Positions 5,170-60,019 of a DNA stretch of 64,000 nt are shown in pieces. Made by a program: the position numbers and the translations under genes. Below the pieces are notes generated by a model. That model did no database searches and had not been told where the DNA came from. It worked only from the letters and a program-made list of their open reading frames with translations. This DNA comes from Polytrichum commune. Lineage: Eukaryota; Streptophyta; Polytrichopsida; Polytrichales; Polytrichaceae. Within the stretch, counting starts at the first letter, position 1. Every line of letters begins with the position of its first letter. The stretch covers positions 7,376,001-7,440,000 of the forward strand of contig OX485803.1 of NCBI GenBank assembly GCA_950295325.1, in the 5' to 3' direction.

Positions 5170-6570
5170 TTCTTTAAGGTCTCCAATTTGTGTAGTTCAT
5201 GGCTCAACCTCGTCCATTTTCATGTAATTTTTCATGTCTTTTGTAGCTTGTGTAGCTGTCATAAATATATCAACATTCTTTTGTTCTTCCACCTCAATTT
5301 CAATATACAAAAAGGTCTTTCTACCGCCATTTTTGTTGATGATTGGATACAATTATAATGTGCATTTGCTCAAGGTTATTCATTTTTTCACCTTTGAAAG
5401 AATAATATAATTATGGTCTCATTAGATAAGCCGCATCACCTATAAACTTGTAAGGTAATAATTTACATTTTATCATTATTTTTTCTAATATCAAAATTTT
5501 AGAACAAGGTCCAGTTATGACAACGTCCAATCCATTCAAAATCGTAATATCAAAACCTACATTTACTATTTACTACACCTCAATGTGTAACTGAATATAA
5601 ATATTTTCTACAATAATATGAGATAAGATCTATAGGAAGAGCAATGATAGGTTTATGACTATCATCAACTGCTCCAATCACATAAGATAATATTCTAAGC
5701 TCTTTAAATTCAACTGCAATTTTATTCAATATAATTTTAGATTGTTTTTCAATCACTAATGATTTTAAATGTTTTTCAATTGCTATACAAAACTTCCTAA
5801 TAATAATGGATGTAGTGCTTTCATAAATTCCATAAGTTTCAGCACAACCATGTAATGAATTATCACTACTGAGTTTATTCAAAGAAAGAGCAATCCGATT
5901 TCTAAAATGAATAGATGTTCTAAAATTTGTATCCTTAGGACTTAATGATAAAGATAAAACATTGCACAAATAATCAAAAGTTTTAGGAAATAACCTTATA
6001 TGTTGTTTGAACAACTTAACCGAGTAGCATTCAAATAGTAATATATTCACAAAAATAGTGCTCGGGTTATACATCCAAATACTTTGTGTCGTCCTAGACG
6101 CACTATTTTTGGCAACCATGTCATGTAAATAGCGATCGTGTGTCACTGCAACTCGAGTACCAACCACCACTAGCAAACAACACTAAAACATAGCAAAGTC
6201 ACACATAAACAACACACCTCCACATTCTCCCCCTACTTACACTCTTGGATTCTCCTGTGGTGGAGTGAGAGATAGCTTGACTCATTGTGTGCATTTGAAG
6301 AGAGATTTAGAGCTCTTGCAAGGGTTTGACTCTCTTCCTTCTCACTTGGCAAGAATGCCAAGCCAAGGAGGAGGCTCCTCACTTAGGAGCCTTCCTCTCC
6401 ACATCTAGATTCATCCATCCAAATCTAGATGGATGAAACCCAATGGATAAGATGCGGTCATCGACGCCGCATACCGTGACAACCATCATAACAAAAACCA
6501 TTGCATGACAACATAATGTTAATGCAGAGCAAGTTTTTGCAAAATTGCAACAACCGCCGTAACATATCGC
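5170..6570 (-). pseudogene. PIF/Harbinger DDE transposase relic, interrupted by a solo terminal repeat
   Basis: This encodes the remains of a DDE_4-type (PIF/Harbinger) transposase. A 198-residue open stretch (5580-6176) includes a helical N-terminal part (FRNRIALSLNKL, then TSIIIRKFCIAIE) and IGAVDDSHKP, which corresponds to the first catalytic Asp. Downstream, through stops and a frame change, I see YYCRKYLYS, GVVNSK, CHNWTLF, GDAAYLMRP (second Asp) and VERPFCILKLRWK (catalytic Glu). The order matches the family. Near 6119 the frame is broken by insertion of the 363-bp repeat at 6119-6481; upstream residues (about HAMVFVMM) resume at about 6482-6570. It is clearly non-functional. Related autonomous copies could have mobilised the TTA-duplicating MITEs in this window. 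Confidence 0.8.
6119..6481. mobile_element. Solo terminal repeat (A+B) of the DNMT retrotransposon family
   Basis: It starts TGTCATGTAAATAGCGATCG and ends ATACCGTGACA, like the ends of the element at 27605-50773. It is flanked by ACCA at 6115-6118 and ACCA at 6482-6485, a 4-bp target duplication. A (6119 to about 6222) is followed by B, but the B segment 6225-6343 is inverted relative to the other copies and adjacent sequence is missing. An A-B solo unit is what recombination between the two B copies of a split-repeat element would leave. It has inserted into the Harbinger transposase relic. Confidence 0.85.
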
Positions 6571-7987: not shown

Positions 7988-8481
7988 GGGGCGGTTTACA
8001 CTATGGACCATGAAGTCGTCCCACGTAAGAGGCCTATTTTGCGTGGGACGACTTCATGGGACGACTTCCATGGTCCGAGTTACTAAAATATTAGTTTCAT
8101 GGTTCATGGGCCCTTCACTGGGTGTAAACCGAATGTGGACCATGAAGAATGACCTGCACCAAAAAGTGGAGTCATTAACTAAGTTGGAAAAAAAATCATT
8201 AAAAAAATCCAAAAAAATCATTAAAACGGCATTTTTCTGACATGGGCCCTTGCTATTTTTCCTAGACCACCTCTTTTGCTTGTCCCAACGGAAAACCCGT
8301 TGGACCATGGCAGTGGATAGAGTAGGCTTAAAAAAACAAATTTGTGGACCTCAACCTCCATGGTCACTCTGCCATTTTTTCCTTGGTGTAAACCCAAGTC
8401 GTCCCGGGACGACTTCAACGTCCAATCACATCGCTTAGACGGCCGTGGGACGACTTCATGGTCCATAGTGTAAACCGCCCC
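7988..8481. mobile_element. PIF/Harbinger-like MITE, 494 bp, TTA duplication
   Basis: Long terminal inverted repeats begin GGGGCGGTTTACACTATGG and include several internal gtcgtcccac / gtgggacgac inverted words. Flanks are TTA at 7985-7987 and 8482-8484. It is the shorter sibling of 618-1732 in reverse orientation. The many nested inverted words make it able to fold into an extended hairpin. It is non-coding; short open stretches on both strands are artefacts of the inverted repeats. Confidence 0.85.
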
Positions 8482-8484
8482 TTA

Positions 8485-9530
8485 GAACCCATGTACCCAT
8501 GAAGTATTGTAGCTTTCTAGCAACTTAAGCACCCCTCAACCCAATAATTAATTAAAGTGTAAAAGTAAGTTAGGCAACCCATGACATAATATTGTAAAAT
8601 TGAGAAAATTCAAAAAGTAATTAAAAATAAGTTAAACATTCATCCAAGTCGTTTCTATAATTCAAAGATGTTTTTCTTTATTTCATCTATGGCAACTACG
8701 ATTAACCTAAACACTTCCCTTAACCAACATCCCTTACTCTAAAGTTTGTCTTTTACTTGTAGGTCAAGGTTTTGCTTGGCAACATATTTTGCTTTGTGTG
8801 AGAGTTATACGAAGTGGTCTTTGTGAGAGACTATGCTACTATGGTGTTTGTGAGAGATTAAGCTCGAGAAGAGTGACAATGATAAGGCAGAAGACCTTGC
8901 AATGTACGTTTAAATCCATTGATAGAGAGGAAATGCATGTACATGTGGAGCGTGAATTGGAGCTGGAGAAAACTATGAAGAAGGAGGTTGCATTATTGTA
9001 ATTTTAGTCACTAATCAAATGTAAAAAAAAATTTGGACACTCAACACAATTAATTTCCTAGAAATGTAGGCACCTTTAAAATTGATTATTTTCTGCTCAA
9101 GTTGCTAGAGAGCTACAATAATTGTGTCGCATGGAGGACCTTGTGTAACCAAACTACAAATATAGTGACTTGACTACGTGTCTTCTATCATAGCTAACGA
9201 TGTACACTAAATATTGTATTTGGTGTCACCAATTCTTTTTGTCTCACTCAATACTAATCGTAAACCTAACATTATTTGGCATTCCCTGATAAAAAAACAA
9301 ATTGGGCATTATAGATTTACAATGTTGCAAATATATCACTTACTAAGTGACATTTCATTCAAATGTCAATCACCCATGATAATATTTCATTACATAAATG
9401 TTAGGATACGTAATATAGCAAAACTTGAAGCATTTCATTTTAGAGTTGTATGTTGGGATGACAATACTTGTAAACTTATTCATACCAAGTGTTGTTAGAA
9501 AAACCTACAATAGTGACACAAAACACCATA
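8485..9530. other. Intergenic, no gene recognised
   Basis: Short open stretches near 8789-9001 and 9214-9498 show no recognisable motif and are no longer than expected by chance. A TIR-like word of the cactaaatatt family lies near 9200. Confidence 0.4.
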
Positions 9531-16309: not shown

Positions 16310-17310
16310 TTGTACTATTGGTGTGTCTCATATCCTAGTAGAAGTGGGTTTGTCGGGGAAAAAAAACCATTTAAACCCCGTCTGCCTTACTAACTCAAAA
16401 CCAACCCCCCTACATACTAAAAGGTAGATGGGTCTTAAGTGGCTCATTTCTTAATTGGACCCCTAGATTTGATTGGTATGTGGTTCGGTGAGGATTAACG
16501 AGCAAACATCATAAAGACACATGTTTAAGGGAGATTGGGCTACATTTTCAAATGCTAATAACTACTCTACACTCAATAGATAACACAATTGGGAGCCAAT
16601 TATGAAATCAACAAACATGTAGTTCCAATAAGCATAACTAAATAAGACGAGGTCCAATTTTCAATCCAGTTTTTGCAAATGTTTCATTATGTATTTCTAA
16701 TGCAACATGATATTTTGTTCTATAAATCTAGTTGGTAGAAGTTGGAGAACATGAAAATGAACCAATCAACACCCACATACCTTATGCCTAAGGAGTGAAT
16801 GGAAGTAGTGAGCAGGGGGTTGGTTTTGAGTTATTAAGGTAAATGGTTTTTCATTGGTTACCTTTCAAGGTAGATGGGTTCCGCAATGGTTACTTTTCCC
16901 GACTAGCCCACTTCTACTAGGATATGAAAACAAGCCATTAAGGTATGTGGGGTGTTATTTGATTCATTTTTCACGGTCTCCAACTTGTACCAATTAGATT
17001 TACACAGTGAAATCCATGTTGCATTAGCAAATCTACAATGAAACATTTGCAAAACCCGGCTCGAAAATCAAACCTCCCTTGATTTAGTTATGGTTATCGG
17101 AATTGCATGTTTGCTGATTTCTTGATTGGATATACAAGTCCTTCCAATTGTGTTCACTGATGAGTGTAGAGTAGTTATTAGTATTTGAAAACGTAGTCCA
17201 ATTTCTCTTAAACATGTGTCTTTATGATGTTTGCTCTTTGATCTTCACTACATCACATACCAATCAAATATAGGGGTCTAGTTAAAAAAACGAGCCACTT
17301 AACCCCTAAT
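16310..17310. repeat. Compound inverted repeats, order X-Y-X'-Y'
   Basis: Segment X (about 16317-16410, including catatcctagtagaagtggg) reappears inverted at about 16820-16945. Segment Y (about 16440-16720, including aagacacatgtttaagggag) reappears inverted at about 17000-17310. Because each is inverted in place, this is not a simple palindrome. It suggests two overlapping insertions of one repeat family or a rearranged fold-back. Confidence 0.6.
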
Positions 17311-25269: not shown

Positions 25270-26165
25270 TTGCATTTGGGTAGATGGAGCTAGAAATATA
25301 ATTTAAAGGCCAGACCAAAGAGCTTCATTAGTGCAACAAATAGATGAGGAACTTGGTCGTTTGGTATGCATTGTACACATTCTATATTGCTCAACCAGTA
25401 TCGGTGGACTATTTTATACCAACAAATTGTGAGCTATATTGGTAGATGCAATATTCATGAATATGTTCGGCATAACATGTATACTTTGTCACCCCAATTA
25501 TGCCCTTTTCTATTATGGGCTTATGCTACCGATGGATCTTGGATTTTGCATGTTCATTAACCACTATGCCGTGGGTGACAAAGTATGTGTTAGTAAAGGT
25601 GGAACACTTTAGCAAAATGGTTAGAACTTGTTGCTCTACCTTAAAATTGTTTGAGTTGGTGGCAAGCTCTTTTCATGATCGTGTGGTAGCATGATTGGAG
25701 CTCCTGTTGAGGTGTTGATTGATTGGAAAAGGAACTTTCTTCGTGGTGTGCAAGATTTGTTTATCAAGGCCCTCATTGATCACTGTACTTCATTACGAGA
25801 TCATCCCTAGGTGAATAAATTGGTGGAGCATGTTGTTCAAACCGTCAAGCAAAGTTACAAAAGTATAGTTCATTTCATGGTGACCATCATGATTGGGATC
25901 ATATGCTCCCATGAATTGTCACGGGGTTTCAATTTAGTTGACATGTATCTTTGGCTTCATATAGTCCCTACCAATTGTTGTTGTTAGAGAACTATATCAT
26001 GTGGTAGATTTTGGCAACCTCGATATGTGGGCGCCATGTCTTCACAAGTGGGCAAAATTCTTTAAGTGAGCCATGCCTAAGGCTATGGAAGCTTTAGCTT
26101 TTGCTCAACACCATAGTACTTTGCACTAAGCTCGTATTTGTAATGATGTTCATTGACCTTTAGAA
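25270..26165 (+). pseudogene. Isolated relic of the retrotransposon integrase
   Basis: Frame-broken plus-strand sequence matches the integrase of the 33411-43353 element. Seen in order: zinc-finger region (THSILLNQYRW, LYQQIVSYIGRC), TLSPQL, RWILDFA, KYVLVKVEHFSK, APVEVLIDWKRNF, KALIDHCTSLRDHP, LVEHVVQTVK and HIVPTN. Many stops and shifts show long decay. The PHD finger that should follow and any terminal repeat are missing, so this is a fragment of a separate insertion. Confidence 0.8.
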
Positions 26166-27604: not shown

Positions 27605-28148
27605 TGTCGTGTAAATAACGATCGTGTGTCGTGCAGCTCAAGTACCAACCACCACTAACAACTAAAACTAAAACACAACGAAGACACACATACACAACAC
27701 ACCTCCACCGAGAAGGAAGAGAGTCAAACCCTAGCAAGAGCTCTAATCCTCTCTTCAAATGCACACAATGAGTCAAGTTATTTCACTACAATACGGGAGA
27801 ATCCAAGAGTGTAAGTAAGGGAAGAAAAACTCAAGATTTTATTGCAACAACATGCAATCTTCACCTCATACAAACTCTTTCCACACACTCACTCACAAGG
27901 CTTGACTTGGCAAGAATGCCAAACCAAGAAGGAGGCTCCTCACTTAGGAGCATCTCTCCAACTCCTAGGATTCATCCATCCAACTCTAAATCGATGAAAC
28001 CCCCTGAATGTGGTGTGGATGCCGACACTACAAACTGTAACAATTGTCATGTAAATAATGATCGTGTGTCAATGTAGCTCGAGTCCCAACCACCACTAAC
28101 AACTAAAACTAAAACATAATAAAGGAACACATACACAATACACCTTCA
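27605..28148 (-). repeat. A-B-A terminal repeats of the old element (lower end)
   Basis: A1 27605-27708, B 27709-28042, a 2-bp spacer AT (28043-28044), then A2 28045-28148, which repeats A1 (tgtcatgtaaataatgatcg against tgtcgtgtaaataacgatcg). The sequence inside A2, read on the minus strand, is the purine run aaaggagggcat, a plausible polypurine tract. Only B is present at the upper end (50455-50773). Confidence 0.85.
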
Positions 28149-28509
28149 TATGCCCTCCTTTAGCTGACTATGAAGCCCTGCTAATTAGCTAGGACCAACA
28201 CCAATCCAAAGGGCATAGATAATGAAGAAATTTTTCACAACCCATTGGGGTGGTGAACGTTATACCAATGAACTGTAGATTGGGTGCAATGTGAGCACCA
28301 TCCTTAATGGCCTCTAATGTTTGGCCATCAAATTCCAAAGAATTAATTTCACCATCTCGCGTTCGATTGCGTTTCTAAGCCATAACTTCTCATTTTTCAT
28401 TTAGGTAGATACAACATGGTGAAAACCATACAAAATAATTTAGCAGGTTTGGTGGAAGATACCGAAGATCCTTGACAACGGGGACAACTCCACTGTCCAA
28501 ATGGTAGAG

Positions 28510-32589: not shown

Positions 32590-33410
32590 GTTTATGTTGC
32601 TTTGGCTTCCGAGTTTGGGAGGAGGGAGGCATGGAGGATATTCCCACGAATGATTTCATTCAATTTTTTGCCTCCGGTGGCCGCTTCATCATCATATGTT
32701 GGTGGTGATGAAGAGAGGCCAGAGTCTACTACTAGTATTGATGTTGGGGGCATAGTTAATGTCCCCTCCTTTGAATAGCAGTTAGAGTCCATGCCAACAT
32801 CGAGTGGTATCCCTTTGGTGGAGAGGGAGACCATAGAATTTGATGATTGGGTATTGGAATTAGGCCCTCATCTCATTGGTGCTAAGACATGGAAGGTACG
32901 AGCGTTCATTTGCTTGTATCATAGGTGTTTTGCTTTTAGCCTTCAAGATCTTAAAGGCTATAAAAGAAAACCATCCACATTCAAGTGGAGGACGACCATC
33001 TTATTTTTTGGAGACCTTATAGGCTCAGTATCTCCGAGAGGATTGGCGTCTAGGCTCGTTGCCAAAAGCTCTTGGCAGCAAGGCTGACCAAACTCTCTAA
33101 CGGGGAGTATGTTTGTACTACAATTATACTGTCGAAGAAGGATGTCTTTGGCGATTGGAAAAAGAAACAGATGTGCGGGGGTTACCGTCCAGTTACCCAA
33201 AAGACCAAGTCAGATCGGTATCCCATGCCAATCCCGAAGAAGTTGTTCAATGTCATTAGATTTTCTCAAGTCTTTAGCACCTTGGATTTGAGATCCGGCT
33301 TTCACCAACCCCCATTATTTGTGGGAGATCGAATGAAAACTGCATTATGAAGAATTGATCAGGATGGGAATGATCAATTATACCATTGGAAGTTTCTTCC
33401 ATTTTTTCCT
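32590..33410 (+). pseudogene. RT N-terminal half of the old element
   Basis: This begins with the linker after the methyltransferase. A UAG at 32776-32778 is followed by CAGTTA. Then come FDDWVLELGPHLIGA, VRAFICLYHR, FSLQDLKGY, NGEYVC, SKKDVFGDW, GYRPVTQKTKSDRYPMP and STLDLRSGFHQ, all matching the RT of the young element. It stops at 33410, where the young element inserted; the reading continues from about 43358 (NAPAEFQRVMN). Confidence 0.85.
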
Positions 33411-34064
33411 TGTCGTGTAAACTAAGATCGTTAAACACAACAGATCGAGTGTCGGCGTCAACATCAATTAGTAAAATAAAATAGCAAACTAAAATGCTAA
33501 ACAACCACCTCTTCAAGTATGAGGGTTTCTCTCTCCAAGCTTAAGAAACTAAAATGTCTCCTTACAAAGCTTAAGAAACTCTAAAATTCACACACAAGAG
33601 TCAAGCTATCTCTCACTCCACGAAGGGAGAATCCAAGAGTGCAAGTGGTGGAGAAAGAATGCAAAGGCTTTACTCATAATCTATTACACCATAGCCATGA
33701 GAAAGCAACAACAAGCTCTCTCTCTCTCTCTCAAAACACACTCACAAGACTTGACTTGACAACAATGGCAAGTCAAGAGGTCTTCCTCTCCATACAACCC
33801 CAATCCTATGTGGAGTTCATCCATGGAGTGGATGAGCAACTAACTAGGACTCCCAATGGAGTCCGTTACTCATCCCAACACACATGGACTCCTAGTGGAG
33901 TCTATTTACTCCTAAATCGACGTGACTTAACCCCCGATGTCACCTCACGTGACAGCTGTCGTGTAAACTAAGATCGTTAAACACAACAGATCGAGTGTCG
34001 GCGTCAACATCAATTAGCAAAATAAAATAGCAAACTAAAATACTAAACAACCACCTCTTCAAGT
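33411..34064 (-). repeat. A-B-A terminal repeats of the young element (lower end)
   Basis: A 33411-33517, B 33514-33954 (a short caagt overlap at the join), GC spacer 33955-33956, and a second A at 33957-34064 that differs from the first at two positions, both transitions. The B-spacer-A junction reads GACAGCTGTC, a perfect palindrome of the two outer ends. Inside the second A the minus strand has tagtgggggca, a probable polypurine tract. B contains a (CT)n microsatellite at about 33715-33732. Confidence 0.9.
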
Positions 34065-34388
34065 GCCCCCACTAGCAGATAAGGAGCCCCTCCAATCGGC
34101 TAGGAACAAACACACTCATCGGTAGAGTTGTTGAACATGATGAAGTTGTTGCTACATCTATACATATTCAATTGGGTAGTGGTAATCTAGGGAATTAAAC
34201 TCATGATTGAGAAAGTAATCCAAGAACTATAGGCTGGGTGCAATTTGAGCCCCATCCTTAATCGCCTTCAACCATTTATGTTGAATTCTTGGATAATTCT
34301 TTCAATGTGATTTTCAATCCCATAAAATTTCCAACCAACTAAATAACAACTTCATCACTAAAACATGTGGTAAACATCCACAAAATCC

Positions 34389-34772
34389 TCAATCATGACC
34401 ATTAACGGCCACGGAATGAGAGGCTTTCCGACAACGAGGACAAACCCAATTGCCAGAAGGAAGAGTAAAAAGGGGAGGTGTCAAACATGCCATGTGCCAT
34501 CCACGTTGACATTGGTCGCACAATAACATTGTTGCAGCTCCTTTCTTCTCTCCACAAACATAATAAGGCAAACCCTGTGGTACAACCGCCAACTCGGGAT
34601 GCACAGAGCCGTCGATGGGAAGGTGACATGGAGCACAATTTTTTGAATGCTCACGACATTCCCGTCCATCCTTGCCTTCAAGCAATAATATACCACTTGG
34701 CAAGACATCTTTTACCCGCAAAATCGTGCGCCCAGCCTTGACATCCAATGTCGTAGGCGCCTCCCGTTGCAA
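34389..34772 (-). other. PHD finger domain at the end of pol
   Basis: This 127-residue stretch carries a C4HC3-type PHD pattern: VCG, MLLCDQCQRGWHMACL, then WVCPRC. PHD fingers read histone H3 tail states. Gypsy elements more often end in a chromodomain, so PHD here may take the targeting role. The first zinc ligand is Tyr (codon at 34563-34565) where the old copy keeps Cys, a G-to-A type change that should disable folding in this copy. The domain is not in frame with the integrase here. Confidence 0.85.
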
Positions 34773-37510
34773 AATCTACGAACCTGAGGTCGATAAGCTC
34801 CACTGCGGATCCGGGCATACCGTAATGTATCACGATGTTGAGCAATATTTAAGTTCTCCATAGCCATAGGCATGGCCTTTTGGAAGAACGTTGCTCGGTC
34901 ATGAAGACATTGAGCCCAAACATCTGGATCATCCAAGTTTACTACGGGAGCCAATTTCTCTCGCACCGAGCTAGGTAAAATTGGTTCCTGTCCATACAAG
35001 AGTTGGTAAGGAGTATAGGATGCCAAAGATGCTTGCCTGCTGAAACGATAACCCATTGCTATCCATGGTAACATCAAGTCCCAATCGCGATGGTTGCCAT
35101 GAAACAATCCATACTTCCGCAAACCGCGCTTAACCGTTTGAACAACTCGTTCAACTAAGCCATCTGCCTCAGGGTGATCTCTGGAAGTTGTCCGATGATC
35201 AATCAAAGCCTTGGTACACAAAGCCTCGAAAGATCCAAGGAATTCTCTCCCTTGATCCGTCAACACCTCTGCAGGTGCTCCAAACCGTGCCAAAACTCGA
35301 TCAAGAAATGCCATAGCCGCCAATTCTGAGGAATTTTGGGGAAGAGCCACGAGTTCAATCCACTTACTAAAATGCTCCACCATCACAAGCACATATTTGG
35401 AACCACGTGGAGTGATAGTAAGCGGTCCGGAAAAATCCAAAGACCAACGATATCCCAAGCCCATAATAGGTAAAGGCTGAAGTTGAGGTGACAAAGTGTT
35501 AAAACTTGACCTGACCCGGTCACATACTTCACACCGAGAAACATAAGTGGCAACCTGTTGATACATACCAGTCCACCAATATTGGTTGCGCAACATAGAG
35601 TGCGTCCTTCGCACTCCAAAATGTCCAAGCTCCTCGTGCACTTGCCGCACCGAAGAAGCTCTTTGATCTGGCCTTGGAATGATGCGTCTCGTTCCGTTCG
35701 GCCACACACGAAATAACAAGTTGTTTGCCCAACGAAACCTTGTTATCCGGTGACTAACTCTATCTCGCTCCATAGCAGATAGTCCAAGAGGAAATATCCC
35801 GTGTTGAAGTTTGTGCAAGACCGTCTGGTCTTCCCACACATCACTAACAACGAGAGATTTATCAACCTCCTCATCTTGTTTTTCTCCAAGGATCTCAGCA
35901 GCCAATCCCGACATCATTGTGAGATATGTGGCAGCATGCCAACCCGGAACTGCCTCACGATCACAATTTCCATGCCACCTGGCTCCAGTTAAATCCTCAT
36001 CTGAAGGACTTGGATTGCGAGACAATCCGTCTGCATCCAAGTTGGCAATTCCTGCTCGGTGAACAACTTCAAAATCATATTCCTGAAGTAACAATGCCCA
36101 CCTAGCAAGTTTCCCGGTGAGCTTATCTGATTCCATAAGCCATTTTAAAGGCTGATGATCAGTCACCAAAGGAAACTTCTGCCCATACAAATAAGGTCGA
36201 AAATGTGCAATGGCCCAAACGGCCGCCAAGGCCTCGCCTTCATAAGAAGAATAATTAGATTCAGCACTATTATTGCTTCTAGATGCATAAGCCACCACAT
36301 ATTCATTTCCCTCTTCATCCTTCTGTGTCAATACCGCTCCCAATCCCACTGCATTCCAATCCGTGTGCAATTGAAAAGCTCTAGACACATCCGGGCGTCG
36401 AAGCACTGGCGCTGAACCGAGCCTCTATTTCAATGTATCAAATGCTTGTTGTTGTTCCTGACTCCAAATCCATGGTTGGTCTTTCCCCGTGAGAATGGTA
36501 AGAGGTTTGGCAATCAAACTAAAGTTTTTGACAAACCTCCTATAATAATTTGCCAATCCTAGAAATGCACGAAGCCGTGGTACATCACTAGGTGCGGGAA
36601 TTTTGTACAAAGCATCCACCTTCGCCTGTTGCACACCAAGACCGCCAGGAACAATCATGTGGCCTAAATAGGGCAATTGATCATGGAAAAACTTACATTT
36701 TCCATGATGTAAACGGAGTCCCCACCGTTGAAGTCGTTCAAATACCGCTTGCAAATGTCTCACATGATTATGTGGACTATTACTAAAGATGATAACATCA
36801 TCAATGTAACATCTAGCAAACGGCAAACCAGCCAATAATTGGTCCATCACCCGCTGAAATTCAGCTGGTGCATTCTTGAGACCAAATGGCAGAAATTTCC
36901 AATGATAAAGTTGATCCTTGCCATCTTTATCAATTCCCCAAAATGCGGTCTTCACCCGATCACCCAACAACAAAGGTAATTGATGATAACCAGACCTCAA
37001 ATCCAGAGTGCTGAAGATTCTAGAAAATCCCAGTGCATCAAACAACTCCTCCGGCATCGGCATTGGATATCGATCCGACTTGGTCTTGCGGTTGACTGGA
37101 CGATAATCACCACACATCCGTTTTTCCGTCCAGTTGCCAAAGATATCCTTCTTTGACGGCATAACCGTGGCACAAGCATACTCTCCATTGGAGAGTTCAA
37201 TCAATTCCGCTGCCAATAACTCTTGACATCGAGTTTGAACACCCAACCTTTCAGAGATACTAAGTCTGTACGGCCGTCTGAAAATAGGGTGGTCGTCCTC
37301 GAGTTGAATACGAACATGTTTACCTTTATATCCTTCAAGATCATGAAGACTAAAGGCAAAACAATTACGGTAAGAGCGAATAAATGCCCGTACCTTTCGT
37401 GCTTCGGCACCAGTAAGCTTTGGCCCCACTTCAATTGGCCAATCGTCAAATTTCGTGGTTTCCTTCTTCAAAGAAGGATTGCCATTTGGTGCCAGCACAA
37501 CTTGTGATTG
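34389..37510 (-). pseudogene. pol: RT - RNase H - DDE integrase - PHD polyprotein, broken
   Basis: RT (open 36425-37498): CGDYRPVNRKTKSDRYPMP, STLDLRSGYHQ, FGLKNAPAEF, catalytic YIDD at 36797-36808, and LGHMIV. RNase H: TDWNAVGLGAVL, YEGEALAA, TDHQPLKWLM (three acidic residues). Integrase: zinc finger (HEELGHFGVRR, then CEVC), core LDFSGPL, LTDQGREF, and Glu in DGLVERVVQTVK. A C-terminal module (TTLDVKAGRTILRVKDV) leads to a PHD finger at about 34410-34580. A UAG at 36425-36427 sits where the old copy has CAG. A small deletion near 34770 (against the old copy) shifts the PHD out of frame, so the region is open as 36425-37498, 34712-36406 and 34389-34772. Translation is expected to start by readthrough of the UAG at 37511. 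Confidence 0.92.
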
Positions 37511-37513
37511 CTA
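37511..37513 (-). promoter_or_regulatory. UAG in TMV-type readthrough context between methyltransferase and RT
   Basis: On the minus strand the codons are GAC UAG CAA UCA, matching the UAG-CARYYA context that permits readthrough in tobamoviruses. The old copy has GAA UAG CAG UUA at the aligned site (32776-32784), also a match although the surrounding protein has diverged. The frame is open on both sides. This would make RT-integrase a minor product relative to Gag-protease-methyltransferase. Confidence 0.7.
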
Positions 37514-39202
37514 GTCCGTGGAGAGGGCAACACCTTTGCCCCCATCATTGGCACTTGAATCCAAATGCGTATCCTCTCCACTACAATCAGTTTGTGTAGC
37601 TAAATAGCTACCCACATATGAAGTATCACCAAGAAATAGAAGTGGAAACATTTTATGGGCCTCCAACTTCCCAAACTCTTGGGCCAAAGCCGAAAAAACA
37701 CGTTGGGCTCGAAATTCTTCCGCAACATGAAGTTTCAAAGGAAATAATCCCTCGGTGTCATTGACCTCAATATGACCCTTGGATTGCGGCTCCATTGCCC
37801 CCTAACCATTGTTCTCTGCCCTCAGAGTAAGCAATTGGTCATCCATACGTTGTTGAGCAGCAAGACAAATTCTAATTATCCACACAATGCTATTAAGATC
37901 CATAACTTGCCCCAATAGGAAACGTCTCTGACCTTCCTGAAGTCCGTGAGCAGCCGTGGTACCTGTAAGAAAACCCATGGCGCGTTCCCGCTCATCTGCC
38001 GTAGGCTCCTCATAAGTTTGGAATTTTGAATCCCAAACCATGCCAGATCAACGAGATCGAAATGCAAAAGACTGTGGATATGTCACAAAAGTAGGTAGTG
38101 CATCTCTCGGAATGCCCACCTTGTTAATTAATGCAAATGGCAAGTTGTCATCCTTGGTAACTGCCAAGGAAACACGATGATCATCTAAAATGTCATCCAC
38201 CTTGCGATCCATAAGGCGGGGAATGCGGGCAATCGCCGTTGAAAGCACCCGAGATGATACCAAGTTTGTCCAAAACCAACGAGGCCGATGAGCAAAGGAT
38301 CCCAAAGATGCAGCATCCAGAAATGTTGGAGTACCCAGAATTTGGTTAATGTACTCACCATCCTTCACCACTTTGTGCCGGGTATCACCCAATAATGGTA
38401 CATTTTCGAAAATGTACCCTGGCGGAGTTGATTGGTGGGTAAACCACCATTGCGTCAATCGCATCAAATCCGCAAACAAACTAGACCTAGGATCATCCAA
38501 TCCCTAGCCAGTTCCTGCCCGCGAATGGCCTTGACAAGGCCATCCTGCAATAATCAAATCCACGTGGCCCAACCTTCTCAAATCCTCATCACTAATCATA
38601 GTGACATCTTGAGGAAGTTGACCACAACATCCATGAATGGCAGAGGCTAACAATTGTGCGGGGTATCTCAACAACAATTGTTGGATGTGGTGTCGGACGG
38701 CTCTGTTGGCTGCATACCCATTGTCCACATGAATATATCGCCAAACTGTAATTCCAGCTTCCAACACTGCCGCCAAACCTGTGCCAATGCCTCCAAAGAT
38801 CTCCACAAGGACAATACCTTCAGGTGATGGTTGCCAACGAATGGGTTGAGCAAAAGAAAATGAGGATGAAGTTGGGGGTGCCTCTCCAAGCTCTAAATCC
38901 GCTACAATGTGTTGACAATGGTCGGATAACTCCTTAGGAGTTCGCCATGGTGGAGGTGGATCCTTGAAATGTCGAGCATGAATTTGAAAAGATGGTAAAA
39001 ATTGTTGTTCTGCCGCATTACAAGTGTAGTCCATTGTTTCCTCCAATAAAACTGGAGCACAAGGCAAATCTGCAACTGAACCGCTGCAACCAAACATTGC
39101 CTCCGCAACCATAGTCATAGCAGTGGCTGCAAATGTGACGGGAATAAATACCTTCCTGCCATCTCCAGTGGACCATCCCGGTCTAATCCATGCCTCTTCC
39201 GT
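37514..39202 (-). pseudogene. DNMT3-like cytosine-5 DNA methyltransferase in the retrotransposon
   Basis: In one frame, interrupted by three stops (38504, 38048, 37802), I see the cytosine-5 methyltransferase motifs in their usual order. Motif I is VEIFGGIGTGLAAVLEAG (about 38770-38825), motif IV DLIIAGWPCQGHSRAG with the catalytic Pro-Cys (about 38510-38560), motif VI GYIFENV (about 38400-38420), motif VIII FAHRPRWFWTNL, motif IX FVTYPQSFAFR and motif X ADERERAMGF, then GQRRFLLGQVMDLNS (about 37870-37990). Order and motif VIII-X wording resemble DNMT3; plant DRM proteins have these motifs rearranged. About 100 residues without a recognised domain precede motif I, and about 100 follow motif X. 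Expected activity is methyl transfer from AdoMet to C5 of cytosine in DNA. The frame is truncated in this copy. Confidence 0.9.
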
Positions 39203-39205
39203 CTA
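39203..39205 (-). other. Shared UAG at the protease-methyltransferase boundary
   Basis: The young copy reads LDN-UAG-TEEAW and the old copy LDN-UAG-TEEAW at 30592-30594. A stop at an identical place in two diverged copies suggests it was in their common ancestor, either as a true Gag-protease end or as a leaky stop. The downstream context (ACG GAA / ACT GAA) is not the CARYYA type. Confidence 0.6.
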
Positions 39206-41608
39206 ATTATCCAAACCAAAGCCAAGTGGGTAAAGAGCTTGCTGACCAACAAATATATCATAGTTGGTAGCATTAGTAACAACACACTTCATTGACAAAT
39301 GAGTGTAAGTAGGCCCTGCCCCCACATGAAAAATCAAACGTAGAGGTGCCTTGGTGTAACCTGTTGCACGTTCAGTGCCCCCTACTGAAGTCACAATAGT
39401 GAATGGACAAAGATCCAAGCTCGCTGGCGTCAATCCAAGACTGTCAGCAAGTCCTTTGCCAATCATAACCGGTTGAGCACCGGAATTCATCATAACTCTC
39501 AGTGGTGTAGCACGGATAGTGGGCATATCCGTGCGTGAAACGACAAACAAAGATTTGTCGTTCATCAGCCGTACAACTCCAGGTTGCAAATTATGCCGTT
39601 CGCGAGCAGGCCTTGCAGAAATGTCTGCAAGATATGCCGCTCCCGACGCATAATTCGAAAATGACGTATCCACTGCTGAAATTGATGCTGGAGGAATACC
39701 AGTTTGCTTACCAAATGCAATGATCGCCGCATCCGCAAGACTCGCTCGCAAATTGGCTAAGTCCTCCAACTCCTCAGCCACAGGTACGTCAACCACAGCT
39801 TGGGATACTTGAAGGGATGGCAAATCCGCCTTACCTTCTAACATTCTCCCAGCTAAATGAAAAACTGCAGCAGGCTTGAAATCCGAAGCCATAAACTCCG
39901 CACCCGAGAAAATTGGCATATGGAGAATTTTATATGCCAATGCCTGCGTAACATCCTTCGAGATAGAATCCCCATCTCTCAAAGGTACAAGGTTTTTAGC
40001 CCCAACAACAGTAGTGTCTACCAATCCAAATGAAAGAGGTAAACGTGCTTGACCAATTTGATCAGCTGGTCCGGCATGGCGAGGATGTAGCACCTCGTTG
40101 CTACCACCACTCGTGGAAGCCACTGCATCTGCCAATGTTTGGGAGCGAGTAGAAGCCGCCGCCACCACCTCTCCAGCTGCTCCAAACATATACATGTCCG
40201 AACCCGAGGTGCCACCACCCACATGCGGCTCATAAATTTGAGCAAAAGATGCAGAAGATTTGAGCTTTTGCTCAAGCTCTGCCACCTTAGCCTCAAGACT
40301 CTGCTCCCTTGGAGACTTTCCAGTGACATAACTGGCAGGCCGCATCTCAGGATGAAGTTGGAAACAATGATCCACATCGTGATTAGTGCCACCACAATGG
40401 TTACATTTCAATTGTCTCTTCTTAGAATTGTCCCTTGTCTTTACTGGTTCCATCTTTTGTTTTAATTTTTCCAAAGGCTGAGTTTTCTTCTTTTTAGGAC
40501 AATTGGGATCATTCTTCGAATGACCAGCTTCTCCACAACCCCAACAATGCAAAATCTTTTGCTCCTTGACGGGTTGAGTCTCAACTAAACTACTAGTAGC
40601 TGTGACAATTCTTCTTGGTTTCGGACTCTCTGTCATCCAAGATACCATATCTGTGGCATCATGTTGGCAAAGAGCCCGATCACATCTCTCAACCATGGCA
40701 AACGCTTGTGCAAGCGTAGCTCGGCCCTCGTAGTCGAGGATAATCCGAGGTGATGCCAACTCAAGTAGCCGCTTGTCAATCTTAGACAAAAAAATTTTAA
40801 CAAGCTGACTCTCAGCAAAAACACCTCCCGACTCCACAGCAAATCGCGCGAGTCACGTATACATGGTCTGTGGAGTATCATCCTTCTCTCGGCGGAAATC
40901 CTGGATGCGCTGCATCTGGTCTCGCCGAAACCCACCATACTCCACTTCCAAATGTGCGACAAATTCAGTAAGGGGATTAAACGGAGGTGGTGGACCAACA
41001 GCCGTCAATGCTGCCTGTGTAGCACGTGCCACCCGTAAAAGGGTTGCCGTGCTACTGCTAGCCACCATTGGTCCAAGTGCCAGTTCCGTGTCCTTAGACT
41101 CCGCCGGCGATTCCTCCTCCTTTAAGGTGGGTGGAGCTAAGGTAGCAACCGCCCCATCCTTAAGGGCTGAAATGAGCTCAACCCGAGCCTCCCAATACTG
41201 CTCCACCTCCCGAAGTTGTCGCTGATGACCCTCTGTCCAACGTTCATAAGTTTGGAGTGCCTCATACTCCAAATGTTGGGGCAGAAGTTCAAAGGCATAC
41301 CAATCATTGAAATTGGAAGACCTTTGGCGTTTCTCCTTAATCCAGGTACGAAACCGGAGTTTCCAATCGGGCAAGGAAATGCCCCCAGCTCGACCTGAAA
41401 ACCGATCACGCACTGAATTGTGGCGATCGTCCTCCATTTCGTCGAACGTGCCGACACTCCAAATTTGAAGCCTACTAGTAGTGTCCAACGCCGAAATAGG
41501 CTCAAAAGCCTCGTTGGTATCTACCTCTGGCTCAAGATTTGTGGTATGCACGTCCTCCAAGTAATCTGGTGATGGAGATCGATAATATCGGCTCCTAGTT
41601 TGCACCAT
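39206..41608 (-). pseudogene. gag: Gag (capsid, two zinc knuckles) and aspartic protease
   Basis: Starts at ATG 41606-41608 (MVQTRSRYY). The capsid-like region has LPDWKLRFRTWIKEKRQ and FVAHLEVEYGGFRRDQM; a UGA at 40853-40855 sits where the old copy has an Arg codon. Two zinc knuckles follow, CWGCGEAGHSKNDPNC and CNHCGGTNHDVDHC, for RNA packaging. The protease lies at about 39210-39560: residues MMNSGAQPVMIG hold the active site, but the expected Asp of the D-S/T-G triad is Asn (codon at 39485-39487), a G-to-A type change. TNYDIFVGQQALYPLGFGLDN precedes the shared UAG. Confidence 0.88.
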
Positions 41609-42905
41609 AAAATAATCACTTGAGTACCTGCAACTATCTACAAGGTAATGGCAACCTGCACCTGTTGCGGGCTATCTAAATGGCAATCCCTTGCCAAATG
41701 CCAAGTGTTTATGCCCCCAGAATTCCAAAATTGTGCAAAGGTTTGAGATTGGTAATTAAAATGAAAAATCAGCGTTGAAAAGGCTCATTTCCAAGGTGAT
41801 TATGGACTCCAATCAACAAACTAAGTGCACCAATGGACTCCTAGGAAGATTTCACACAAATTAGGCTCAAATTTCACTCCATTCGGAGTTAATTTGCTCC
41901 CAAAAACAAAAATCAGCGTTGAAATTAATAATTTCAGCAATGATTTTGAATTCCAATCAACAATCCAATTACACCATTGGATTCCTTGGCAAATTTCACA
42001 CAAGATAGGCTCAAATTTCACTCCAATCGGAGCTAGTATGCCCCCAAATTTGAACCTCAAAGTTTGTGAGAATTGGATGCCAAGTTTGAAAGGTGAAAGG
42101 AAAAATATGAAAATAAAATAAAAATAAAAATATTTGTTTTAATTAAACAAAACAGAAATTTTTTAAAAAACAGAAAAAATAAACTTAATAAACTTAAATG
42201 AATTAACTTAAATAATTTAATTTAACTCAACCTAACTTAATTAATTTAAACTAATGAACCTAACCTAATTAAGCTAACCTAATTAAGCTAACCTAATTTA
42301 ATTAACTAAGTTAATTAATTTAATTAAGTTAACTAGCCTAATTAAGTTAACTAGCCTAATTAAGGGAGGCTTACCTTGAAGCCGCCATGGAGCCGCAATT
42401 TAAGGGGGGGCCAGGCTGGCGCCGCCCGCCACCTCGGCCAGGCTGTCGCCCGCCCGCCCTCGGCCCGGCCTGCTGCCACCTCACCGCGGGGCCCGGCTGG
42501 CGCCGCCCGCCCCCGGGTGCAGAATTGGAGCTCCAGGAGCTCCAGGAGCTCCAAGAGTGTCCGTGGAGCTCCGGAGCTCAAAAAAAATTATAAAAATTCG
42601 GATTGTAAGTTTGGTTTGTGTTTGTTTGTTAATTTAAAAAAAAATTAAACTTTGCTTTTACAAATTGCAAGCAAGAATAATGTGACTTGAGAATCTTGAG
42701 ACCAAATAGAATCTCAAGATTCAACCATCAACACTTGAAGAAAACACAAAGAGACAACAAAAGAAAAATGGGAAGATTTCTCTCAAAATCTTCTTGAGGG
42801 TTGCAAGAAATGACAAACTAAGCTTTCAAACACTTGTATCACTCATTTGTTCTCAATACTGGGCCATTCTAGCTCAGAAATACAACCAAAAAATGAAAAA
42901 TTTGA
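41609..42905 (-). other. 5' leader of the young element with tandem repeats and a GC-rich block
   Basis: Between the self-priming site and Gag. It contains two tandem copies of about 143 bp (41766-41908 and 41909-42050, each with atcagcgttgaaa and ggctcaaatttcactcc). A low-complexity stretch of cctaattaagttaac words lies at 42150-42365. A GC-rich block at 42370-42570 has three gagctccag units. No long open frame with recognisable content. A structured leader could serve packaging or internal initiation. Confidence 0.7.
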
Positions 42906-42921
42906 GCCATTGTTGTCAAGT
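42906..42921 (-). other. Putative self-priming site (PBS) of the young element
   Basis: Minus-strand ACTTGACAACAATGGC lies directly inside the 5' B repeat. B itself contains on the minus strand the exact complement GCCATTGTTGTCAAGT (plus-strand positions 43153-43168, and 33754-33769 in the other B). An RNA starting within B could fold back on this site and prime minus-strand synthesis, as in Tf1 of fission yeast. No tRNA-complementary site (such as the TGGTATCAGAGC form) was found here. Confidence 0.75.
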
Positions 42922-43353
42922 ATGAGGGTTTCTCTCTCCAAGCTTAAGAAACTAAAATGTCTCCTTACAAAGCTTAAGAAACTCTAAAATTCACACACAA
43001 GAGTCAAGCTATCTCTCACTCCACGAAGGGAGAATCCAAGAGTGCAAGTGGTGGAGAAAGAATGCAAAGGCTTTACTCATAATCTATTACACCATAGCCA
43101 TGAGAAAGCAACAACAAGCTCTCTCTCTCTCAAAACACACTCACAAGACTTGACTTGACAACAATGGCAAGTCAAGAGGCCTTCCTCTCCATACAACCCC
43201 AATCCTATGTGGAGTTCATCCATGGAGTGGATGAACAACTAACTAGGACTCCCAATGGAGTCCGTTACTCATCCCAACACACATGGACTCCTAGTGGAGT
43301 CCATTTACTCCTAAATCGACGTGACTTAGCCCCCGATGTCACCTCACGTGACA
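42917..43353 (-). repeat. B repeat at the 5' end of the young element
   Basis: About 437 bp matching 33514-33954 at about 99 percent, lacking the A part. It ends in CACGTGACA at the TCCT target duplication (43354-43357). It should contain the promoter. The transcription start is inferred near 43170 from the self-priming complement. Confidence 0.9.
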
Positions 43354-43357
43354 TCCT

Positions 43358-50454: not shown

Positions 50455-50773
50455 CGAAAAGGAAAAGAGCTGTAATTTTCTCTTCAAATGCACATAATGA
50501 GTCAAACTATCTCTCACTCCACTACGGGAGAATCCAATAGTGTAAGTAAGGGGAGAAGAACTCAAGATTCTATTGCAACAACATGCAATCTTCTTCTCAC
50601 ACACGCTCTCTCCATACACTCATTCATAAGGCTTGACTTGGCAAGAATGCCAAACCAAGGAAGAGGCTCCTCACTTAAGATCATCTCTTCAACTCCTAGG
50701 GTTCATCCATCCAACTCTAAATGGATGAGACCCCTTGGATGCGGTGTGGACACCGACGCCGCATACCGTGACA
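50455..50773 (-). repeat. B repeat at the 5' end of the old element
   Basis: Matches 27709-28042 (ctcttcaaatgcaca, cgggagaatccaa, aacaacatgcaatctt, aatgccaaaccaag, atccatccaactcta) and ends ATACCGTGACA. No A segment is present here, as in the young element. Confidence 0.85.
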
Positions 50774-51022: not shown

Positions 51023-54000
51023 CTACTTCTTCACAATTTCTTCATATAAATTATCACAAGAGGTGCTAAATGATCTTCGTGACGTCTTCCTCCTTTCATT
51101 TGGAGGTGAATCGGATCTCGAGGTCTGGTTACTGTTGTTTTTTTCAGCCTCTGCTTTCTCCATTCGGTATACAAACGCCTCTACGAAGAAGGCGACAATC
51201 ACATTGAGTGTAAACGTGACTGCAATAGCCCAAAAGCTAATAAAAAAGGATCGAGACCATGGAGTTCCTGTAACGACGGCGTAAGCGTCCATGATTACGT
51301 ACCAGTTATTCACGATACATAAGTTAAAGGACGTAACCATGGCCGAGGCATAATCATTGTAGTTGAATGCATAGAGATGGCCAGTGGCATAATCTGTGTT
51401 TTCTAGAAGAGGGTTTCCCAAGTAAACTTTGCCTCCAAAAATGTGTACACCAAGGAGAGAAAAGAGAGTGCATATAAGGAACTGAAGCGTAAGGATAGGT
51501 GCTGTAGCTGGGATCAAGTGCAAAAGAGTTTGGGCCATGCAATGCCATCGTGAGACCAGAGTTATGAAAGAAAACACCCGAAGTATTCGTGCGATGAACA
51601 AAATTGAAACCCTGCAAACAAACCAAGCCCACCAAAACTTCTTAGCGAAACAAACATGTTATTTTTTTTAATCAAGTTATAAAAATGGAAAAGTTGTTTG
51701 TTCCATTTTGATGTAACCACAAATTTGCAATTTCAAGCTACCCACAAAAGTCCTTATTCTCAAATGTGCAACATCATGAAGCCTTGACAATGAAAAGAAT
51801 TGAAACCCTGTAAACCAAGCCCAAGGAAATTTCTAAGTGAATGCATTTTACTTATATCAAGTATACAATTGGAACTACTTTAAAATGAATTCCATGACAA
51901 ACTTTTGCAGGCACCTATAATGGTGCTCTCAAAAGTTTGACAAAGACTTCATTTTTGTATAGCCGCCTTTTGGCCAAAGTCAAACATCTACACTTCAATT
52001 TATTGAAATTGGGGGTTCCCAACACCACTTGAATGCTCCTTAAACGTTATAAAGTCAGAAGTGGGCAAAACTCCCTACCAAAACATTACTTCTAGAGAGA
52101 AGTTAAGAATAATTCTATTGGCTTCAAAAGATGGTTTTTCAGTGTGGAACATCATAAAGCCTTAGAAGATTAAAAACTTTACCAGTGGTGTTCAACCAGG
52201 TGTAGAATAGATGCAAGTTGGAGAACCGTAGTTGAAACTGTGAGAAGGAAGTCAAATTGATTCACATGGTTACGCCAGTAGGATCTCCAGCCATGAACAG
52301 TTACTTTCACCAATACATCCAAAAGAAATATTATACCTGAAACACACATAGTCAACAAATGTCCATTGAGAAGTAAATCTTCAGAATATGGTACTCTATG
52401 CGGGCCTTAATTGAACACTACATGGTCTTATGTAGACGCCTATAGTTAAGTGGTATATGATGAGGCTTGTAGTAAAGAGTGCAAACCAAACAGACAGTTG
52501 TTACAATGAGATTGGACTATGTGCTCAAAATTTGGACATTATTCTAGGTTCAGTAATTAACATAATTGGGAGGTTGCCTAAAGAGAAAGAAGAATCTTCA
52601 CTTTGACCTCTTAATATTTTGCATGTCAACTCCAATTTTGTCATTTGAAACGACAATATTTTCACAATCCCACCAAAGGCCAAAAATGTATGCCGAGTTG
52701 GAACTGTCCAATATAGGTCCGCAAACCTCAGACATAATTGATTGAGCAAATAGTCTACTCCATAACTGAAAAGCATCTGACTGTTGAGGACTTCACATAC
52801 CAAAAACAATCTCCACGAGTGCTAACCACTTCTTCAACTCATTGGATTTTGTCTGCGCACAAAATTGAACAAAATAAGTCACTCCTTATTAGCGCAAGAG
52901 TTCAACAAAGTCCAACTGCTGTTCCATGTAACTAGGATTGCCAAAACAACAATCAAGCCAAAAGGAGAAACAGATAAAGATTAATGGGTAGGATTTAATG
53001 GGGCAGGTTTTAGAGCCAAAAGTACCTCCCTCTCGCATATCGCCACCAACACAGAAGCAATTACAGCAGTCCAAATTAAGAGATTATAGACAGGTTCTGT
53101 ATCTCTTTTGAACTGATTGATGGCAGCAAGCATCTCTGCCGCTTGGCTTGATGACCTTGGCAATGTGCGGGGCGGACATTTCTCCCAAATGTCATCCAAT
53201 TCATGTACAATTTTATCGCAGAGTCCTCCAAATTCATCTTGCGATATCTTGAAGTTGCCATGCTTACCGAGTGCCAAAAATACTTCATGCATGTTTGAGC
53301 AGAAATCAGGAATGCAACTGCATCAATCAATGGAAATCCCCCACCCCCCACCCCCCAAAAGGCCGGATTGTAAGAAATCACTAGGCCAAAAGCCAATTGC
53401 TGAACCATAGAAATGTTCCACTGAAATTAACCATGTCATTTAAACATCAGTTAGAGAAGACAAATTTTACTCATAATTACCTATCTTGGGCTAGATCCAG
53501 GCAGCTAATTTTCTATCACAAGGTCTACTTTCCCAGACTTGCCATAAACTTCCAGATCTTTGTAAGCAGATACACACTGCAATTCGAAAAAACATTTTGG
53601 CAGAAGAGGATGAAAGATGAATCAGCAATCACCTGTGTGACCAACCTGTAGCTACTCATTGCATGAAATAGAGCAATCATGGTGGCACCATCAATCCACT
53701 TTTGTTCTCTTGTTGTTAACAGATTGAAGGCGGCCCTCAGGCTTTGTTGCCTTTCTGTATTCCGTTTCTCAACTTCATTTGCCATCTGCAGCATAGGTGG
53801 GACTTCAACCTTAACTATCTCAATTGAGCAAATCAAATAAGTCTCAGTACCACAAATCTTTTCATGAAGTTATCCTTAAAGTCTCTCAGAAACTCATGTT
53901 TTGGTAGGCACAAAAGAATCTCATGACAAACTTTTGAAGGCACCTAAAATGGTGCTCCTGAAAGTTTGACAAGGACTTCATTTTATATAGCCATCTCTTG

Positions 54001-59424: not shown

Positions 59425-60019
59425 GGGCGGCTTTATATTAGGGGCCATTTGGCGGCCGGGCCATTTGGAGTAGAGGCAACTTGGACTTGAAGTGGCCCTT
59501 ACTTTACTCTAACTTTAGCTCTACTTTACAAAGTGGCCCGTTGAGTGGCCCTTGCAATATAAAGTCCATAGGACCACTTGTAGGGTCCAAATTGGAAATT
59601 CCGCTTTAAAGTGGGCCTTCCAAATGGCCCTAGGGACTTTATATTGTAAGGGCCACTCAACGGGCCACTTTGTCTTAAATGAATTATGCCCTTTCTTGAA
59701 CTAAAGTCATAAAGTCATAAAGTCATAAAGTCATAAAGTCATAAATGACTATATGATGGAAGTTGGGTGAAGTGGCCCGTAGATGCGAAGTGGCTCTCCA
59801 TAAACCCTCGACCCATTTTTTTGCAGGCGGGCCACTTTTTTCCCTCCAAAACGCCGCCATGTCACCCGCCACGCAAGCTTTAGGAGAAGTGGGCCGACTC
59901 TCAATATAAAGCCCTCGGGGCCATATTAGGGGCCATTTGGGCAATCTAAGCACTCTCATTGGTTGATGCCTAGGGTTTGGAAACGGCCCCTAGAAATGGC
60001 CCCTAATATAAAGCGGCCC
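59425..60019. mobile_element. PIF/Harbinger-like MITE, 595 bp, TAA duplication
   Basis: Ends are GGGCGGCTTTATATTAGGGG and the inverted GGGCCGCTTTATATTAGGGG, flanked by TAA at 59422-59424 and 60020-60022. Inside are an inverted pair (aagtggcccgttgagtggcc near 59530 and its complement near 59655) and five tandem aaagtcat units at 59703-59742. Non-coding. Confidence 0.8.

What the first reader, a model, noticed from the sequence alone, without database searches (positions are those of the whole stretch)
33411..43353. Split terminal repeats (B - coding - A - B - A) on a DDE-integrase element
The lower end has A-B-GC-A, the upper end only B, yet the outer ends are bounded by an exact TCCT duplication, so nothing is missing outside. 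The old element (27605-50773) has the same layout with its own sequences and a 2-bp spacer. Such A1-ORF-B1A2B2 repeats are known from tyrosine-recombinase (Ngaro/PAT/VIPER) elements, not from gypsy elements with H2C2/DDE integrase. Cutting a two-LTR circle at its internal GACA-nn-TGTC junction would give this structure, so integration may use a circle-junction substrate. The polypurine tract and priming site define an LTR of A-spacer-B, offset by one A length from the inserted ends.
Basis: partly seen in the sequence, partly recalled or inferred. Interest (0 to 1): 0.95.

Follow-up and report, generated by a model that had tools for sequence, protein, structure and literature searches.

The report
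Retrotransposon integrating through its LTR interior
A family of plant jumping genes carries a retrovirus-type integrase, yet its chromosomal copies begin and end in the middle of the repeat made by reverse transcription, as if the integrase cuts a paired site inside the DNA and the cell then glues the real ends together.

Summary
On the + strand the element reads A-B-GC-A-interior-B between exact 4-bp duplications. The A-B-GC-A end recurs at the 40 best-scoring of 824 candidate places, and 19 of 22 copies with both ends read have exact 4-bp duplications. None of the 40 best-scoring B ends belongs to an ordinary or mirror-image (interior-B-GC-A-B) copy. New here: (1) three families have a covarying 13-16-nt self-primer, placing the cDNA ends exactly at the A|B joint; (2) those ends lack TG/CA, whereas the internal GACA-nn-TGTC site supplies the inserted ends; (3) repeats are homogenised within copies; (4) the joint shows +1-nt variants, trims, filler, and A joined to truncated cDNA. 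So the joint is probably made anew by end joining, and only the primer-site-side LTR seems cut, which argues against random cutting of a symmetric two-LTR circle. Short copies (B-interior-A) also exist; their origin is open. Enzymology is inferred. The layout was known; I found no description of the mechanism.

The parts
33407..33410 (.). target duplication TCCT, left copy
33411..33517 (-). A1 (outer): coding strand CTTGAAG...CACGACA; outer end TGTC on + strand
33518..33518 (-). extra base at the B'|A' joint; absent in 96 of 100 listed joints
33519..33954 (-). B1
33955..33956 (.). 2-bp spacer GC of the internal GACA-GC-TGTC site
   Evidence: GC 84, GT 7, AC 7, GA 2 of 100 listed, 103 in all
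33957..34063 (-). A2 (inner, next to the polypurine tract)
34064..34074 (-). polypurine tract TAGTGGGGGCA
   Evidence: function inferred from position and sequence
34712..36406 (-). RNase H / H2C2 / rve DDE integrase ORF
36425..37498 (-). reverse transcriptase ORF
38048..39118 (-). Dnmt3-like cytosine methyltransferase region in two ORF pieces (38504-39118, 38048-38500)
   Evidence: below cut-off; relative L001 E=6.8e-12
39203..40837 (-). zinc knuckle and aspartyl protease ORF
   Evidence: below cut-off
40853..41608 (-). gag-like ORF
   Evidence: no family match above cut-off; named by position only
42906..42921 (-). priming site ACTTGACAACAATGGC directly after B2, complementary to the primer in B
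42922..43353 (-). B2 (coding 5' end, TGTCACG...CCCTCAT)
43153..43168 (-). self-primer GCCATTGTTGTCAAGT inside B2
43354..43357 (.). target duplication TCCT, right copy
27605..28149 (-). old element, A-B-AT-A end
50463..50773 (-). old element, B2 end
6119..6481 (.). solo A-B of the old family, duplication ACCA, with an inverted B piece (6225-6343) whose inner edge is the U5 end | priming-site boundary

Best explanation
It is a self-primed Ty3/gypsy retrotransposon of a Dnmt3-carrying lineage whose integrase site lies inside the LTR. Steps: (1) the transcript's B region folds so that an internal 13-16-nt primer pairs with the priming site just after B; reverse transcription gives linear cDNA with LTR = A'-nn-B', starting CTTGAAG and ending CCCTCAT. 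(2) Those termini lack TG/CA. The integrase instead cuts the palindromic GACA-nn-TGTC site of the priming-site-side LTR, giving TGTC-B' at one side and a 107-bp A' piece ending in GACA. (3) Both ends are joined to the target with 4-bp staggering. (4) The cDNA's far end (normally the B' end) is joined end to end with the A' start, before or after integration, giving B'-interior-A'-nn-B'|A'. One-sidedness could arise because the priming-site-side LTR becomes double-stranded first. Shown: layout, 4-bp duplications, primer covariation, homogenised repeats, variable end-join-like joint, no mirror form among the copies read. Inferred: enzyme, order of steps, reason for one-sidedness.
For: Layout and duplications. 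Spacer templated: GC in 84 of 100 listed sites; 14 of the other 16 differ by one transition, 2 read GA. Primer complementarity in three families, 0 of 500 shuffles as long in each, all different in sequence; folded leaders z -4.25, -4.76, -4.00, the exact pairing being in the predicted fold of two of three. Repeats homogenised: four informative B sites concordant in 15 of 15 copies, within-copy B 0.40% against 1.58% between; one A variant shared by both A copies in 6 of the 7 elements (of 21) that carry it. Joint made anew: 96 of 100 listed joints identical, 4 with +1 base, the +T of window and solo L126 not close kin; nine irregular joints from one pattern search, incl. trims of 2 and 21 nt, B and inverted pol pieces as filler (L182, L179), A joined to pol (L180); 185 nt of filler exactly between U5 end and A start, duplication GGTC (L153/L166); A joined to truncated leader, duplication CCAC (L139/L165). 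One-sided: 0 of 40.
Against: No enzyme test, no RNA start or end, no circle data. Most joints are exact, more regular than unguided end joining usually is. Short copies (B-interior-A) are 10 of 23 read unpaired A starts; 2 of 3 with both ends have matching duplications. They could be primary insertions, which would need the second GACA-nn-TGTC site or a one-LTR circle, or A1xA2 recombinants; their age does not tell (p=0.34). The irregular-joint search was conditioned on an intact A start, and three sister searches (next base A or T) did not complete. In 5 of 30 cases a B's sister is not its nearest B. L001's predicted fold prefers a local hairpin to the exact 13-nt pairing. The 40 A ends and 40 B ends are the best-scoring of 824 and 807 candidates, not a random sample.
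Confidence: 0.72

Rival explanations
1. One reading: a two-LTR circle forms first and the integrase opens it at one of its GACA-nn-TGTC sites.
For: Gives the observed order; a mostly exact B'|A' joint is what two-LTR circles would show; the circular contig L001 fits circles but also ordinary assembly collapse.
Against: Two equivalent sites predict about half mirror-image copies; 0 of 40 scored B ends and 0 of 42 judgeable nn sites show them. Survives only with an added asymmetry.
Confidence: 0.17
2. DIRS/Ngaro-like copying: the outer A1 and the B'|A' joint are copied from the RNA template, so cDNA already ends in TGTC and GACA.
For: Same repeat topology as PAT/Ngaro elements (PMC4157794 passages); 96 of 100 listed joints identical.
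Against: A1 and A2 share element-specific variants; the joint shows filler, trims and joins to truncated cDNA; priming site and polypurine tract sit exactly at the joint's two sides; no tyrosine recombinase found in the ORFs scanned.
Confidence: 0.07
3. Ordinary gypsy copies damaged by independent deletions.
For: None beyond the general frequency of LTR deletions.
Against: Same layout at the 40 scored places, different host flanks in the 20 first read, exact duplications in 19 of 22.
Confidence: 0.01

Closest known systems
KnitGypsy-Dnmt3 of Klebsormidium nitens (de Mendoza et al. 2018, PMC5890265; section 9 read, other passages seen)
   Same: Gypsy domains, Dnmt3-like domain in Pol, repeats arranged as in DIRS elements
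   Different: There the layout is a remark in a figure legend; in what I read no target duplications, primer, integrase site or joints of this element are described
PAT / Ngaro / VIPER tyrosine-recombinase retrotransposons (PMC4157794: passages; PMC6681497: search listing only)
   Same: A1-ORF-B1-A2-B2 split direct repeats
   Different: DDE integrase, 4-bp target duplications, polypurine tract and priming site; no tyrosine recombinase found
Tf1/Sushi and plant Tcn1 self-primed chromoviruses (PMC6317226 passages)
   Same: Primer taken from the element's own RNA (predicted)
   Different: Split repeats; PHD finger in relative L001 and no chromodomain match there; insertion ends not at cDNA ends; primer lies deep in B, RNA start unknown
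Retroviral two-LTR circle-junction model of Panganiban and Temin 1984 (via PMC11054761 passages)
   Same: Integrase would act on abutted inverted ends
   Different: Here the abutted site is part of the LTR itself and is templated; in retroviruses linear DNA proved to be the substrate
IS3/IS911 copy-out-paste-in minicircles (recalled, not looked up)
   Same: DDE enzyme acting on a head-to-head IR junction with a short spacer
   Different: Bacterial DNA transposons; no reverse transcription

Membership tests
Ty3/gypsy LTR retrotransposon | RT - RNase H - H2C2 - rve integrase order | tested here: met
   relative L001
Ty3/gypsy LTR retrotransposon | 4-5 bp target duplication and TG...CA ends | tested here: met
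   19 of 22 exact 4-bp duplications; ends TGTC...GACA
Ty3/gypsy LTR retrotransposon | same LTR at both chromosomal ends | tested here: not met
   A-B-nn-A at one end, B at the other
KnitGypsy-Dnmt3 lineage | Dnmt3-type domain in the polyprotein | tested here: met
   window copy weak, below cut-off (PF00145 E=0.0017; 22 of 23 weak hits are DNMT3A/B/C, E 0.2-0.8); relative L001 E=6.8e-12
KnitGypsy-Dnmt3 lineage | DIRS-like repeat layout | tested here: met
   published description
KnitGypsy-Dnmt3 lineage | phylogenetic grouping with K. nitens elements | tested here: inconclusive
   K. nitens P0021/P0066 fall in a separate clade (98/99); whether they are KnitGypsy-Dnmt3 proteins was not established
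DIRS/PAT/Ngaro (tyrosine recombinase) | split direct repeats | tested here: met
DIRS/PAT/Ngaro (tyrosine recombinase) | tyrosine recombinase gene | tested here: not met
   no such match in the six element ORFs of 150 aa or more or in the three L001 ORFs of 200 aa or more
Tf1/Sushi-type self-priming | priming site complementary to the element's own LTR | tested here: met
   16, 13 and 13 nt in three families, 0 of 500 shuffles each
Tf1/Sushi-type self-priming | primer at the RNA 5' end, released by RNase H | not testable with these tools
   no transcript ends available

The most novel reading that the evidence does not exclude
A retroelement DDE integrase that does not use the ends of its cDNA at all: the LTR carries a ready-paired, palindromic 'circle junction' that is cut in only one LTR, probably while reverse transcription is still unfinished, and the host's end-joining machinery is an obligatory last step that seals the provirus. 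The architecture would then be kept from charophyte algae to land plants.
Probability: 0.5. Interest if true: 0.88.

Novelty: new variant of a known kind. Interest (0 to 1): 0.8.

Why it matters
Textbook retroviral and LTR-retrotransposon integration uses the two ends of linear cDNA. Here a lineage with the same class of integrase has its integration site inside the LTR and leaves the cDNA termini to be joined. It offers a natural test of the old circle-junction idea, shows how split repeats can arise without a tyrosine recombinase, predicts dependence on host end joining, and warns that LTR finders may misread such elements (false boundaries, wrong ages, missed copies).

Tried and rejected
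Independent deletions: rejected. tRNA priming: the site after B starts ACTTGAC, not TGG, and matches the element's own B instead; no tRNA set was searched. Random cutting of a symmetric two-LTR circle: disfavoured by 0 of 40 mirror copies. Spacer made afresh at each integration: rejected, it is templated. Inherited joint: disfavoured. Short copies as clearly older recombination products: not shown, p=0.34; cause left open. Copies in viral contigs: none confirmed. 200 kb next to the window: no copies. L178 of the irregular-joint list is not an A repeat (no TGTC start) and was dropped from that count. C1:46454140, first noted as a trim of about 90 nt, proved on reading to carry a B piece as filler (L182). 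L143/L147 looks like one irregular element with an inverted A end; its far end was not read. L172 missed the A start it was meant to show. TPC-like host ORF gave no species name.

Full report
WHAT IS THERE. On the coding (-) strand the element reads B2 - priming site - gag-like ORF - zinc knuckle/protease - Dnmt3-like region - RT - RNase H/integrase - polypurine tract - A2 - GC - B1 - A1, inside a TCCT duplication. It sits in the old element 27605-50773, which has the same layout with its own sequences and an AT spacer. A third insertion, of the old family, a solo A-B form at 6119-6481 with ACCA on both sides, was not in the finding.

GENOME-WIDE. The window lies in a 407.8-Mb assembly of 64 contigs. 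The A-B-GC-A query was scored at 40 places, the best of 824 first-look candidates and window included: all 40 carry the layout, 36 over the whole 654 bases. I read 25 of the other 39. In the first 20 the host flanks all differ; 19 start with TGTCGTG and one with TGTCATG, and the A|B joint is identical in 20 of 20. Of the 5 further ones, one has a base change at the joint and three have altered or missing outer A ends (L099, L101 by one base, L103). The window differs from all of these by one extra base at the joint. Exact 4-bp duplications: 19 of 22 copies with both ends read; one fits 3 of 4; two have degraded ends.

NO ORDINARY OR MIRROR COPIES SEEN. All 40 scored B ends (best of 807 candidates) were read: none continues into nn-TGTC; two of the 40 lack the intact terminal GTGACA (L105, L087) and one carries a tandem duplication of the B end (L117). 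Of 43 GACA-nn-TGTC sites in the part of the genome covered by both pattern lists, 31 have an exact A start 480-650 bases upstream, 6 have the A|B joint listed there, 4 have A on reading (one apparently split by an insertion of about 9 kb, L146/L150), one has neither A nor priming site in the stretch read (L145), and one could not be judged (L147, rearranged B, upstream not read). The spacer is GC in 84, GT in 7, AC in 7, GA in 2 of 100 listed (of 103) sites.

OTHER FORMS. Of 28 unpaired A starts among the first 100 listed (of 224), 23 were read: 10 short copies (TGTC-A-polypurine tract-interior), 8 solo A-B, 1 regular copy with altered A2, 4 irregular. The 8 solos show 7 exact duplications and one 3 of 4; short copies with both ends read show 2 exact of 3. 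Short copies are not detectably older (8 short against 11 regular; mean distance 0.046 and 0.038, p=0.34; private changes 5.6 and 2.5, p=0.36, one short outlier), so they may be primary insertions or A1xA2 recombinants.

SELF-PRIMING. Directly after B lies ACTTGACAACAATGGC (new), complementary over 16 nt to a site inside B; old element 13 nt, relative L001 13 nt, all different in sequence; no shuffle of 500 reached these lengths in any of the three. Folded leaders are unusually stable (new z -4.25, L001 -4.76, old -4.00); the exact pairing is in the predicted fold of the new and old element, while L001's fold uses a local hairpin and a neighbouring pairing. The priming site of other copies varies beyond a 13-nt core. 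The predicted cDNA end (CCCTCAT, just before the priming site) and start (CTTGAAG, just after GGGGGCA) are exactly the two sides of the B'|A' joint.

REPEATS ARE REMADE EACH CYCLE. Four informative B sites agree between B1 and B2 in 15 of 15 copies; within-copy difference 0.40%, between copies 1.58%; a B's sister is its nearest B in 25 of 30 cases, ties counted. One A variant is in both A copies of 6 elements and in A1 only of a seventh, of 21. A1 and A2 differ at 17 positions summed over 21 elements of 107 bases.

THE JOINT IS MADE ANEW. 96 of 100 listed joints (of 112) are identical, 3 have +T and 1 +A. The +T of the window and of solo L126 are not close kin. One pattern search for an intact A start followed by G or C gave 10 places; one is no A repeat; nine are irregular, eight of them read: U5 trimmed by 2 nt (L183); by about 21 nt where both sides share CAAG (L184, L185, and C4:3516462 from its 16 listed letters only); a B piece of about 112 nt as filler before a B trimmed by about 18 nt (L182); three bases replaced by four (L181, duplication ACAA); an A-A join through a spacer base (L142); 130 nt of filler of which about 120 nt is the element's own pol sequence inverted (L179); A joined straight to pol (L180). 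Found independently: 185 nt of filler, not in the window's element, exactly between A start and B end, with GGTC on both sides (L153/L166); A joined to truncated leader, CCAC on both sides (L139/L165); A joined to inverted leader (L143). The solo at 6119 joins the A start to an inverted B piece whose inner edge is the U5 end | priming-site boundary, as a misprimed fold-back product would (inference). These are what end joining of free cDNA ends produces. Limits: the pattern search demanded an intact A start and a last listed base other than G; the three sister searches did not complete.

MECHANISM. Linear cDNA with LTR A'-nn-B' has termini without TG/CA. The inserted ends come from GACA-nn-TGTC of the LTR next to the priming site: TGTC on B', GACA on the 107-bp A' piece. 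The far cDNA end, normally B', is joined to the A' start. That explains regular copies, truncated cDNA joined to A', and filler; a symmetric circle would also give mirror copies. I suggest that the priming-site-side LTR is duplex before the other, so only it can be cut (inference from standard reverse transcription). Enzyme, timing and repair pathway are untested.

KIN AND NOVELTY. Named protein relatives among the 120 listed of 723 are from liverworts (Riccia, Calypogeia), Klebsormidium and Closterium; most others are unnamed metagenome proteins; the host is probably a bryophyte (inference). Relative L001, a 9,285-bp contig with 127 identical bases at both ends filed under a cyanobacterial MAG and the only close one of 43 loci, has an ORF with protease-like and Dnmt domains, an RT-integrase-PHD ORF, the GACA-GC-TGTC site and a self-primer; its circular form can be assembly collapse. 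de Mendoza 2018 (section 9 read) already states that KnitGypsy-Dnmt3 has the repeat structure of a DIRS element with Gypsy domains. Searches of the held library listed no paper that from its title, abstract start or the passages I read describes the mechanism; most listed papers were not opened, and subscription papers are mostly not held.

Noticed in passing
window 6119-6481: Solo A-B form of the old family with ACCA duplication and an inverted B piece whose edge is the U5 end | priming-site boundary.
   Followed up: yes
window 25298-26142: Inverted relic of a related integrase/RNase H region (about 65-72% DNA identity to the new element or L001).
   Followed up: no
window 38048-39118: Dnmt3-like cytosine methyltransferase region split into two ORF pieces in this copy; in one open frame in relative L001, whose integrase ORF ends in a PHD finger.
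   Followed up: partly
window 51023-51601: ORF with an ion-transport domain resembling a two-pore calcium channel, next to the old element's end.
   Followed up: partly
window 41758-42045 and 42407-42514: 144-bp tandem pair and GC-rich 27-bp repeats in the element's leader.
   Followed up: no
window 613-1737 and 7983-8486; 16435-16784 and 16939-17302; 59528-59673: Inverted repeats (79-96% alike) and a palindrome, possibly other transposons or foldback elements.
   Followed up: no
L117 (G000:C1:45111283-45111600): B end present as several tandem copies of about 74 bp at one copy's outer end; apparently the same copy has two A repeats in tandem at its other end (L142).
   Followed up: partly
L001 (CADCWO010000201.1): Retrotransposon contig of plant type filed in a cyanobacterial MAG: probable contamination of a GTDB species genome.
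   Followed up: partly
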